From Gemmatimonadota bacterium (GTDB lineage: Bacteria > Gemmatimonadota > Gemmatimonadetes > Longimicrobiales > Gaopeijiaceae), in NCBI GenBank assembly GCA_003248075.1, contig QJYK01000281.1, positions 1 through 37,395 of the forward strand: a DNA stretch of 37,395 bases, in the 5' to 3' direction. The notes below the pieces were generated by a model. That model saw only the letters and a list, made by a program, of their open reading frames with translations. It did no database searches and had not been told where the DNA came from. Positions 5,190-14,298 of this stretch are shown piece by piece (position 1 is the first letter of the stretch; the number at the start of each line of letters is the position of its first letter). The translations under genes and the position numbers were made by a program.

Positions 5190-6058
5190 CACTCACACCG
5201 TCGTCCGGGCGCGCATCGGCGCGCCTGCTGCAGGCGCTGCGGGCGCCGGGTCCGCTCGTCACGGTCGAGATGCGCCTGCCGCGGAGCGACCTGGGGCAGG
5301 GCGCCGGGATGGCCGCCTGGATCGACCTGCACCACGCGCTGGGCCGCCTGGTCCGCGACGATCTCTTCGTTTTCCTGACCGACAACGCCGTGGGCTCCGC
5401 CGAGGAGGAGAGCCTGGCGCACGTCGGCGCCAACGTCGCGGGCGGCGTGGATCGACGACGGATCGTCCCGATCCTGACGTGCAAGCATGCACTCGACTAC
5501 TGTCTGATGTTCGCCGCGCGCGCCGTGTCCCAGGGCTTCGATGCGCTCACCGTGCTGGGCGGTGATCCGTCCGTCGGGCCGCCGCGTTGCGTGCCCCACG
5601 CGCGGGACCTGCGCGCGCTGATCCGTCAGCGACTTCCGGAGCTCGCGCTGGGCGGCTGGGTCAATCCCCTCAAAGACCCGGAGGAGCAGGTCGGCTACCT
5701 CACAGCCCCCGACGCGCACGTCGACTTCGCGCTGGCGCAGATCGTCTCGCACCACGCGATCGATCGGGTCGAGCGCTTCCAGGAGCTGCTCCGGGCCACC
5801 GGGTCGACCATCCCTGTGGTCTGGGGCGCCTTCCACTATCGTAGCGCGAACCCGCGCACGCTGGCCACGCTCGGAGGCTTCTTCCCGGTTCCCGCACACG
5901 AGATCACTCGGGAATTCGAGCGCGGGGACGACGCCGACGAGATCTGCGCGCGCACGATCCGAGCTCTGCGCGCGCGCGGTGCGGATAAGGTGTACGTGAG
6001 CAACCTGGGAAGTCGCGGTGCCGGAAGGCGTCTTCGCTCGATCCTGGATCGGGTCTGA
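5186..6058 (+). CDS. Stand-alone methylenetetrahydrofolate reductase-like (MTHFR superfamily) protein
   Basis: The product is 290 residues, close to the length of a single MTHFR TIM barrel. Family-like elements are an early Glu (VTVEMRLPRSD, where MTHFRs have SFEFFPP), LTCKHALDYCLMFAARA, and VLGGDPSVGPP, which corresponds to the FAD-contacting SGDPP loop. GGWVNPLKDPEEQV and SHHAIDRVERFQELL follow, then FHYRSANPRTLATL. It is clearly diverged from the classical MTHFR domain encoded at 6231-8078, so the same substrate cannot be assumed. The GTG start at 5186 overlaps the aminopeptidase stop (GTGA), indicating translational coupling. It converges with the homocysteine methyltransferase/MTHFR gene. 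A folate or other FAD-linked one-carbon role is inferred from the fold only. Confidence 0.7.
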   Translation: MTLTPSSGRASARLLQALRAPGPLVTVEMRLPRSDLGQGAGMAAWIDLHHALGRLVRDDLFVFLTDNAVGSAEEESLAHVGANVAGGVDRRRIVPILTCKHALDYCLMFAARAVSQGFDALTVLGGDPSVGPPRCVPHARDLRALIRQRLPELALGGWVNPLKDPEEQVGYLTAPDAHVDFALAQIVSHHAIDRVERFQELLRATGSTIPVVWGAFHYRSANPRTLATLGGFFPVPAHEITREFERGDDADEICARTIRALRARGADKVYVSNLGSRGAGRRLRSILDRV

Positions 6059-11903: not shown

Positions 11904-12038
11904 GGGCCGCAATACGCCGCAAATCGCCCCGTTGGATTGTTCCCACAAGCTACAGAACGCATCGCCTGGGGCCAAGGCTCGCACCGTATGGTCGGCGAGG
12001 CGAGATTGACCGGGCTCCCCGGACGAGGAGGTCGACGG

Positions 12039-12926
12039 GTGGACAGTACGGTGCGGCCAGGCGGGTCGGCGGCGTTCTACAAGGCACACGGACTCGGGAA
12101 CGACTACCTGGTCTTCGAGGAAGGCGGCGACTGGCGTGTCGATATCCGGGGGGTCCGATCGGTCTGTGACCGCTGGCGGGGCCCCGGTGGCGACGGCATC
12201 GTCGTTCGGCTGCAGGATGGTCCGCCCGGTGTCGTGCGGGTCAGGATGTTCAACCCCGACGGCTCCGAGTTCGAGCGGAGCGGCAACGGCCTCCGGGTGC
12301 TCGCGTCATATCTGGCCCGACGTGGCGAAGTGCGAGACGCGCCGTTTCGGGTCGAGGTCGGAGGCGACCAGCTCGCCATGACGGTGCACGGGCGAGCCGG
12401 GGCGGCCTGGGACGTATCCGTGGCGATGGGACGGGCGCAGGTGGGAGCCCACGCCGTCGGCCTGGACCCGGCGGCGCTCGACGGCGGCCGCCGCATGCGG
12501 GGTCCGGACGGCGAGTGGCTGGACGTGGTCCCGGTGTCGACCGGCAACCCCCATCTGGTGGTCCTCCACGAGCACCCCGACCTCGCCGCGCTCGGCCGCA
12601 TCGGGCCGTTCCTCGCGACGCATCCGGCACTCGCCGGCGGGGCGAACGTCCAACTGGCCAGTCCGGAGCCCCCCGACGCGTGCCGCGCACTGATCTGGGA
12701 GCGCGGTGTGGGACCGACGTCAGCCTCCGGGACGTCCTCGTGCGCAGTGGCGGTCGCCGCCGTGTCCCGGCGACTGCTGAGCGCCGGCCGCGTGAGGGTG
12801 CGCATGCAGGGCGGCGAGCTCACGGTCGAAGTGTCCGAGAGCCTGGAGGTCGTGCTGAGGGGACCGGTGGAGGAGGTGTGCGAAGGCACGCTGACCCCCG
12901 GATTCCTGGCGGGCCTCGGGCCCTAG
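12039..12926 (+). CDS. dapF: Diaminopimelate epimerase-like protein with Ser at both catalytic Cys positions
   Basis: The product is 295 residues. The GTG at 12039 is chosen because GAGGAGG (12025-12031) lies 7 nt upstream and the family N-terminus (YKAHGLGNDYLVF) begins about 12 residues in. DapF converts LL- to meso-diaminopimelate for lysine and peptidoglycan. Family motifs are present: GGDGI, MFNPDGSEFE, STGNPHLV, and a WERGVGPT loop. However, the two catalytic cysteines (usually in CGNG and ACGTG) are Ser81 (RSGNGLR; codon AGC at 12279) and Ser230 (SASGTSSC; codon TCC at 12726). A Cys five residues after Ser230 is retained. It may be an epimerase variant, an enzyme with another substrate, or inactive. 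The TAG stop includes the TA and first base of the MITE-like element. Confidence 0.75.
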   Translation: MDSTVRPGGSAAFYKAHGLGNDYLVFEEGGDWRVDIRGVRSVCDRWRGPGGDGIVVRLQDGPPGVVRVRMFNPDGSEFERSGNGLRVLASYLARRGEVRDAPFRVEVGGDQLAMTVHGRAGAAWDVSVAMGRAQVGAHAVGLDPAALDGGRRMRGPDGEWLDVVPVSTGNPHLVVLHEHPDLAALGRIGPFLATHPALAGGANVQLASPEPPDACRALIWERGVGPTSASGTSSCAVAVAAVSRRLLSAGRVRVRMQGGELTVEVSESLEVVLRGPVEEVCEGTLTPGFLAGLGP

Positions 12927-12990
12927 GAGCCTGCAAAAAATAATGCAGCGGGCCGCGTTGGAGATGCCACGGCCCCTCAACCATGGCGGC

Positions 12991-13027
12991 GCAACGACGC
13001 GTAGCCGTAGCTACTCGGAGGAGCGCC
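12991..13027 (+). repeat. Structured repeat core, diverged copy B inside MITE left half
   Basis: This stretch (GCAACGACG, then GTAGC-CGTA-GCTAC, then TCGGAGGAGCG) resembles the copies at 6140 and 13130 (minus) in order of elements: AACGACG, a GTAGC/GCTAC hairpin, then a CGG-GAGGAGCG tail. It has gaps and several mismatches. It lies in the loop of the 12968-13048 hairpin, mirroring where copy C lies in the other half of the element. Confidence 0.45.
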
Positions 13028-13129
13028 AACGCCGGAGGAGGGGCCGTGCCACCCCGACCCCCTGAACGCGTATGTACATATCAACTGGGTGTTGGGGCAC
13101 ATGGGGGTTACGCCGCTGATCGGTCGTCG

Positions 13130-13170
13130 CTCCTCCTCGCCGTAACGCTGCTACGACTCGTCGTCGTTCC
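13130..13170 (-). repeat. 41-nt structured repeat core, copy C inside MITE right half
   Basis: On the minus strand this matches 6140-6180 at 37 of 41 positions. It lies between the arms 13098-13123 and 13175-13197, which pair nearly completely (CACATGGGG at the outer ends). On the plus strand the repeat reads as LLAVTLLRLVVVP in one frame. No start codon with a ribosome-binding site and no downstream plus-strand gene supports a real peptide here, since the next gene is on the other strand. Confidence 0.75.
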
Positions 13171-13227
13171 TACGCCGAGCAGCGTAAGCCCCATGTGCGC
13201 GGCCCACTGTATTACTCGGACAGGCTC

Positions 13228-14298
13228 CTAGGTGCGAACCCGGATCAGCAGCACCGACGCGGCCGCCGCGAAGACCACGTTGGGGGTCCACCCGGCCACG
13301 TGGGGCGAGAGCGTTCCGGCCTGCCCGAGGGCGCCGGAGATCTTGAACAGCAGCAGGTACAGGATCGTGGTCCCGAGGGAGACGCCGATCCCGTAGGCCG
13401 TGCCTCCCCGCTGGCTGCTGGTCGCGAGAGGCAGGCCGAACAGGATGACCACGAGCGTCGCGACGGGGATCGAGATCTTTTCTTCGCGGTCCGTGAGGAG
13501 CTTCTGCGCGTCCCCTCCGGTCCGTTGGATGATCCGCGCCAGCCGGGAGATCTCTGCGTAGGTCATCTCCTCCGGCTCACGGGGGAGCTCGAGGAGGTCC
13601 TCGGGCCGCTCGCTGATCCCGGCGAGCTGCAGCGCCTCGAACTGGAACGCACGCTCGGTGCTGTCGGGGTTGAGGCTCCTCAAATAGCCGCGTTGGAAGG
13701 TCCATCCCCGGTTCGCGTCCCAGAAGGCGGAGCCGGCGGTGATGTGGAATCCGGCCCGCTCGCGGGTGGGCGGACGCTCGAGGATCACGTCCGACATTCT
13801 CCCGTCCGCCGCCGTGAGCCTGGCGATCTGCCAGGTGGTTCCGCCCTCCGACTCGTACACGAAGTCGCTTCGCCAGGTGCGGCGGGGATCCTCGTTCTGG
13901 AGGATCTGCGTCGCGATGCGATTACCGATTGGGATCACCTGGGAGAGAACGAGGGCCACCCCGGTCAGCACCAGTCCCAGGAGGACAATGGGACGGATGA
14001 GGCGATGGAACGAGATTCCTCCCGCCTTGGCCGCGACCACCTCGTGGTGCGTGGTCATCGAGTGCACGGTGAAGACCGCCGCGATCAGCCCCGCGATCGG
14101 GAACGACCACTGCAGGAAGAGCGGGAGCTCGTAGAAGTAGGCCCTGGCCACGTCCGACGCCGCAAGGCCCCGGTCGATGTAGGTGTCCAGGTTCTCCGTG
14201 AGGTCGCCCAGCAGGAAGAGCCATGGTGCTGCCGCCAGGAAGATCACGAACAGCTTCAGGAACGTCCAAGCGACCATTCGGTCCAGGATGCGGATCAT
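13228..14298 (-). CDS. lptG: LPS export permease, LptG
   Basis: The product is 356 residues, typical for LptG. Three N-terminal membrane helices (about 10-30, 55-80, 100-125) and three C-terminal ones (about 275-350) flank a periplasmic β-domain. A THHEVVAAKAGGISFHRL segment is the conserved cytoplasmic coupling region seen in YjgP/YjgQ proteins. With LptF and an LptB2 ATPase encoded elsewhere, it would extract LPS from the inner membrane for transport to the surface. The ATG overlaps the lptF stop (ATGA, 14295-14298). Of the two genes, the second is assigned LptG by the order lptF-lptG and its shorter length. The last codon, TAG (13228-13230), is partly made of the flanking TA and the MITE-like repeat. 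Confidence 0.88.
   Translation of the reverse strand: MIRILDRMVAWTFLKLFVIFLAAAPWLFLLGDLTENLDTYIDRGLAASDVARAYFYELPLFLQWSFPIAGLIAAVFTVHSMTTHHEVVAAKAGGISFHRLIRPIVLLGLVLTGVALVLSQVIPIGNRIATQILQNEDPRRTWRSDFVYESEGGTTWQIARLTAADGRMSDVILERPPTRERAGFHITAGSAFWDANRGWTFQRGYLRSLNPDSTERAFQFEALQLAGISERPEDLLELPREPEEMTYAEISRLARIIQRTGGDAQKLLTDREEKISIPVATLVVILFGLPLATSSQRGGTAYGIGVSLGTTILYLLLFKISGALGQAGTLSPHVAGWTPNVVFAAAASVLLIRVRT

What the first reader, a model, noticed from the sequence alone, without database searches (positions are those of the whole stretch)
12924..13230. MITE-like element supplies the stop codons of both flanking convergent genes
A ~303 bp element with ~31-bp terminal inverted repeats is flanked by TA on both sides, and has no transposase. 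Its two halves each hold a large hairpin. Because the TA is followed by G at either end, it creates TAG for dapF (12924-12926) and for lptG (13228-13230). An insertion at a TA between the genes could have reset both C-termini, or the element may be selected to insert at stop codons.
Basis: partly seen in the sequence, partly recalled or inferred. Interest (0 to 1): 0.6.

Follow-up and report, generated by a model that had tools for sequence, protein, structure and literature searches.

The report
Mobile DNA that spares stop codons
A 303-base mobile DNA element without genes has jumped into a four-letter site (CTAG) where two facing genes end; because the two middle letters are copied and the element begins with G, both genes still end where they did, and related elements in this bacterial phylum often sit in stop signals in the same way.

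Summary
In detail: window 12926-13228 is a 303-bp element with terminal inverted repeats (TIRs), no ORF, flanked by TA inside CTAG, at the ends of dapF and lptG. It is a MITE: G000 has 17 further strong matches and 22 of 58 relatives match. The reading is only partly right. The stops were not created: LptG ends at the same C-terminal motif in 28 relatives without the element, and empty sites of two sister copies show a single CTAG, one already shared by two convergent stops. TA is duplicated and the TIR starts with G, so TAG re-forms on both strands. Of 44 genes running into an element, 34 end exactly there (1/3 expected, p=3e-9). IS630 is not supported: this TIR type is found beside IS1182-family transposase fragments, and a sister TIR bounds an IS5-family IS. 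The surprise is modularity: one double-hairpin core, seen only in Gemmatimonadota, carries at least six TIR types; in one genome two cores are 96% identical while their ends are 54-58% identical. Hairpin arms covary strongly with few G-U pairs, which points to a DNA-level process. Verdict: real; a new MITE family with seemingly interchangeable ends that persists in stop codons.

The parts
12926..13228 (.). MITE, TIR type A, 303 bp
   Evidence: TIRs, TA flanks, multi-copy
12923..12926 (+). left CTAG: outer C, duplicated TA (12924-12925), G12926 = first base of the element; TAG 12924-12926 is the stop of dapF
13228..13231 (-). right CTAG: C13228 = last base of the element, duplicated TA (13229-13230), outer G; TAG on the minus strand (13230-13228) is the stop of lptG
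12926..12958 (+). left TIR, partly decayed
13196..13228 (-). right TIR, GGAGCCTGTCCGAGTAAT type
12965..13051 (.). hairpin 1 of the core
   Evidence: arms; covarying in 28 elements
13097..13198 (.). hairpin 2 of the core; its loop holds the most widely shared motif (about 13123-13184)
   Evidence: arms; shared part; covarying
11937..12926 (+). dapF (ORF as listed; the true start may lie further in)
   Evidence: ORF; homologous to the DapF matches beside lptG in relatives
13228..14298 (-). lptG
   Evidence: ORF; orthologues beside dapF in relatives

Best explanation
A non-autonomous DNA transposon (MITE) of a Gemmatimonadota family was inserted by a transposase acting in trans, most likely of the IS1182 family, at the TA of CTAG, a palindrome that carries TAG on both strands. 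The site held the touching stops of the convergent genes dapF and lptG. Duplication of TA, with element ends that begin with G, rebuilt TAG on both sides, so neither protein changed. Insertion there is nearly neutral, so copies persist at stop codons while insertions inside genes are lost. Shown: the element, its copies, the TA/CTAG flanks, empty sites of related copies, enrichment at stops, the unchanged end of LptG in relatives. Inferred: the empty site of the window copy itself, the transposase, and survival rather than recognition as the cause of the enrichment.
For: Multi-copy with shared TIRs. In 44 pairs with TA intact on both sides: 27 CTAG/CTAG, 17 discordant, no identical non-CTAG 4-mer pair, and innermost base G/C in 87 of 88 ends, hence TA duplication in preferred CTAG. 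Empty sites with one CTAG for L202 (shared stop of two convergent genes) and L053 in a congeneric genome; L211 sits in a stop codon that is TAA in a congeneric genome. 34 of 44 genes running into an element end in the TA|G stop, p=3e-9; 29 of 77 elements against 33 of 224 other CTAG sites touch a stop, p=6e-5. LptG end conserved in 28 relatives without the element. Type-A-like TIRs beside IS1182 transposase fragments in G343 and G019.
Against: No empty site for the window copy itself; the gap between the dapF and lptG stops in relatives is mostly 6-98 bp, with a few overlaps of 23-29 bp, so a 2-bp overlap is inferred. No complete type-A IS was found, and none in the own (incomplete) genome. 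The literature gives 4-bp duplications for IS5 and for one IS1182-family IS (PMC5493358, PMC3281130). Gene calls were heuristic and the copies are related, so p-values are approximate.
Confidence: 0.8

Rival explanations
1. IS630/Tc1-mariner MITE, as the first reader proposed (TA duplication; from my own knowledge IS630 prefers CTAG).
For: TA duplication within CTAG fits.
Against: No DDE_3 transposase in the own genome; TIR types A and B match IS1182- and IS5-family ISs. DDE_3 was not searched in relatives.
Confidence: 0.06
2. The element is kept because its hairpins serve the host, for example as a two-way transcription terminator or mRNA end between the convergent genes.
For: Position at gene ends, strong hairpins, conserved and covarying core.
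Against: No intrinsic-terminator-like site, no Rfam match, few G-U pairs in the covarying arms, and relatives do without it at this place.
Confidence: 0.15
3. Replacement insertion: as reported for IS1272 of the IS1182 family (PMC5678879), the element replaced a pre-existing inverted repeat or intergenic stretch between dapF and lptG instead of entering a single CTAG.
For: IS1182-type ends; relatives mostly have 6-98 bp between the two stops whereas here nothing remains outside the element.
Against: TA/CTAG on both sides in most copies and two clean single-CTAG empty sites of sister elements, though these are of another TIR type; the type-A copy L211 fits TA duplication.
Confidence: 0.1

Closest known systems
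MITEPsy1 of Pseudomonas syringae, IS5-type MITE (PMC3189936)
   Same: Non-coding, TIR-bounded, inserts at CTAG or YTAA, thought to be moved in trans by an IS5-type transposase
   Different: 100 bp; 4-nt duplication reported; one TIR type; no double-hairpin core; preservation of stops not described in the passages read
IS1182 family (IS1272, PMC5678879; ISPse1, PMC3281130)
   Same: Type-A-like TIRs lie beside IS1182-family transposase fragments; some members target palindromes
   Different: No transposase here; IS1272 replaces inverted repeats without duplication and ISPse1 has 4 bp, whereas this family shows TA
IS5 (PMC5493358)
   Same: Target mostly CTAG; sister TIR type B bounds an IS5-family IS
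   Different: Reported 4-bp YTAR duplication; the window element has another TIR
TA-flanked bacterial MITEs: Correia/NEMIS, RUP (PMC2229807)
   Same: Non-coding repeats with TIRs and terminal TA
   Different: Described there as under 200 bp and mostly A+T-rich, RUP linked to IS630; here about 300 bp, with several TIR types on one core

Membership tests
MITE | Short, non-coding, TIRs at both ends | tested here: met
   303 bp, TIRs, no transposase ORF
MITE | Multiple dispersed copies with target duplication | tested here: met
   empty sites for sister copies
MITE | TIRs shared with an autonomous IS | tested here: inconclusive
   Type-A-like ends beside IS1182 fragments only, no complete IS; type B has IS5-family ISs with transposase between the TIRs
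IS1182-derived | TIR identity to an IS1182 member plus mobilisation by it | tested here: inconclusive
   One end each in G343 and G019; mobilisation not testable
IS5-derived | IS5-type TIR on this element | tested here: not met
   The window element has TIR A; TIR B is the one of the IS5-family ISs
IS630/Tc1-mariner MITE | TA target duplication | tested here: met
IS630/Tc1-mariner MITE | DDE_3 transposase with the same TIRs | tested here: not met
   No PF13358 in G000; not searched in relatives

The most novel reading that the evidence does not exclude
A modular mobile element: one structured double-hairpin core repeatedly exchanges its outer 20-25 bp at both ends, so that transposases of different IS families (IS1182, IS5 and others) with the common target CTAG can move it, and it persists in stop codons because insertion rebuilds TAG on both strands. 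Template switching between hairpin arms could copy a new end from one side to the other.
Probability: 0.45. Interest if true: 0.68.

Novelty: new variant of a known kind. Interest (0 to 1): 0.5.

Why it matters
It shows a simple route by which a transposon can enter dense bacterial gene ends without harm: a target that is itself a stop codon on both strands, plus ends that restore it. Exchange of ends on a conserved core, if confirmed, would explain how a MITE outlives its parent IS and makes the question of how MITEs change transposase testable within one phylum.

Tried and rejected
IS630 origin: no DDE_3 in the own genome. Known RNA: no Rfam match. Intrinsic terminator or sigma-70 promoter: none found. 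A 4-bp CTAG duplication: no identical non-CTAG 4-mer pair occurs. Parent IS of TIR type C: 20 single type-C ends read; none matched the IS5-B or G019 IS1182 transposase by tblastn, and their ORFs were only looked over. Complete type-A IS: joining G019 contigs C43 and C89 over an identical 141-bp overlap gave no left TIR. Empty site of the window copy itself: no genome close enough. Papers on MITEs in Gemmatimonadota or on insertion within stop codons: none found in an open-access library.

Full report
Observation. CTAG occurs at 12923-12926 and 13228-13231, and the 303 bp between TA and TA (12926-13228) start GGAGCCTG and end CAGGCTCC. It holds two hairpins and folds far better than shuffled sequence. 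dapF (+) and lptG (-) end in the left and right TAG. The left TIR of this copy is partly decayed, so the copy is probably old (inference).

Copies. The own genome (G000, 5.6 Mb in 344 contigs) has the 18-bp TIR at ten places with at most one mismatch and 17 further places that match the element with E below 1e-15, many with the same core but another TIR. Of 58 relatives 22 match. An exact scan for a degenerate loop motif in 84,980 species gave 34 stretches, all from records named Gemmatimonadetes, Gemmatimonadota, Longimicrobiales or Gemmatimonas; records near the window's own genome may be left out of that list, and the pattern is strict.

Target. TIRs of eight types were paired in the loci fetched (76 pairs; 77 with the window copy). 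In the 44 pairs with TA intact on both sides, 27 are CTAG/CTAG. The other 17 differ between the sides: TTAG/CTAG 4, GTAG/CTAG 4, CTAG/CTAC 3, CTAG/CTAA 3, and TTAG/CTAA, ATAG/CTAG, CTAG/TTAG once each. None is an identical non-CTAG pair, and the innermost base is G (left) or C (right) in 87 of 88 ends. Duplication of a 4-mer would give pairs such as TTAG/TTAG. So the duplication is TA, the preferred target is CTAG, and G is the first base of the TIR.

Empty sites. L202 (genome G007, type C) lies between two convergent genes; the same place in the congeneric G288 reads TTCATCTAGAGCCC, with one CTAG that is the stop of both genes. L053 in G007 likewise has a single CTAG in G288, in the stop of one gene. 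L211 (type A, G155) sits in a stop codon that is TAA in the congeneric G163, with a few changed bases beside it; its flanks GTAG and CTAG are what TA duplication predicts. For the window copy this remains an inference. In 28 of the 29 other relatives read (the 29th is cut by a contig end) LptG stops right after the same C-terminal motif, with no element after it; G014 reads accTAGggc.

Stops. With open frame and GC3 bias as gene evidence, 34 of 44 genes running into an element end in the TA|G stop, 7 and 3 in the other frames (one third expected, p=3e-9); with TA intact 32 of 36. Of 224 other CTAG sites in the same DNA, 33 touch a gene's stop and 1 is shared by two. Of 77 elements, 29 touch a stop (p=6e-5) and 4 clean copies (window, L004, L151, L202) are shared by two convergent genes (p=0.016). 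Elements thus sit at stops more often than their target does. I read this as loss of harmful insertions; active recognition of stops is not excluded. Gene calls are heuristic, copies share ancestry and loci were chosen by element matches, so the p-values are approximate.

Transposase. In G000 neither PF13358 nor PF01609 matched; the assembly is incomplete. TIR type B (GGGAAGCTCTGCACA) bounds ISs of about 1.2 kb in G008 and G051 whose protein is an IS5-family transposase (NF033581, E 8e-97 and 4e-98). Type-A-like ends lie just upstream of an IS1182 N-terminal fragment in G343 and just downstream of a C-terminal part in G019 (NF033551, E 9e-23 and 2e-54, both below the family cut-off). Parents of the other types were not found.

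Modularity. All 63 elements of 255-390 bp with TIR types A-F match the core. On a tree of 51 cores the TIR type changes at least 13 times, where five would do if each type were one clade; no shuffled control was run. In G004 a type-D and a type-C element have cores 96% identical while the outer 24 bp are 54-58% identical at both ends, with a sharp boundary. Small elements with other TIRs (types G, H) carry one related hairpin.

Structure. On 28 aligned elements 95.5% of cells pair, 57 of 83 pairs have changes on both sides, and every measure exceeds all 500 shuffles and all slid versions. The structure was derived from this alignment, which favours it, but the gap is large. Two-sided changes (340 cells) far outnumber one-sided ones, and G-U makes up about 3% of paired cells by my count from that table. 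This fits pairing or copying at the DNA level better than RNA selection (inference).

Mechanism. Shown for sister copies: insertion at TA in CTAG with TAG rebuilt on both strands. Inferred: an IS1182-type transposase in trans, survival at stops, and change of transposase by exchange of ends, perhaps by template switching between hairpin arms.

Known kinds. It is a MITE. CTAG-targeting MITEs are known (MITEPsy1, PMC3189936), IS5 targets mostly CTAG (PMC5493358), TA-flanked bacterial MITEs are common (PMC2229807), and IS1272 of the IS1182 family targets inverted repeats (PMC5678879). I did not find described the preservation of both convergent stops or the exchange of ends on one core; only an open-access library was searched.

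Noticed in passing
window 6064 to about 6190: A truncated type-B relative of the same element (TIR CCAGGGACGCTCTGCACGGGTACGGTACCCCG plus part of the core), in the gap between two convergent ORFs that end at 6058 and 6231.
   Followed up: partly
L063/L102, L103 (G037) and L065 (G022): About 160-bp elements with other TIRs (CTAGTGTACCGTAACAG..., CTAGTGTAGTGTCG...) flanked by CTAG and carrying a single hairpin related to the core.
   Followed up: partly
G002 and G017, e.g. L097-L101: The core loop motif recurs in near-identical form, often at contig ends, which suggests a very abundant recent repeat that breaks the assemblies.
   Followed up: no
L115, L116, L118, L119: Transposase genes of other kinds (IS4 family by NCBIfam for L116) also have candidate terminal repeats that begin at CTAG, so several IS types in this group may share the target.
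   Followed up: no
window, whole: CTAG is rare: 9 sites against 44.8 expected from shuffles.
   Followed up: no
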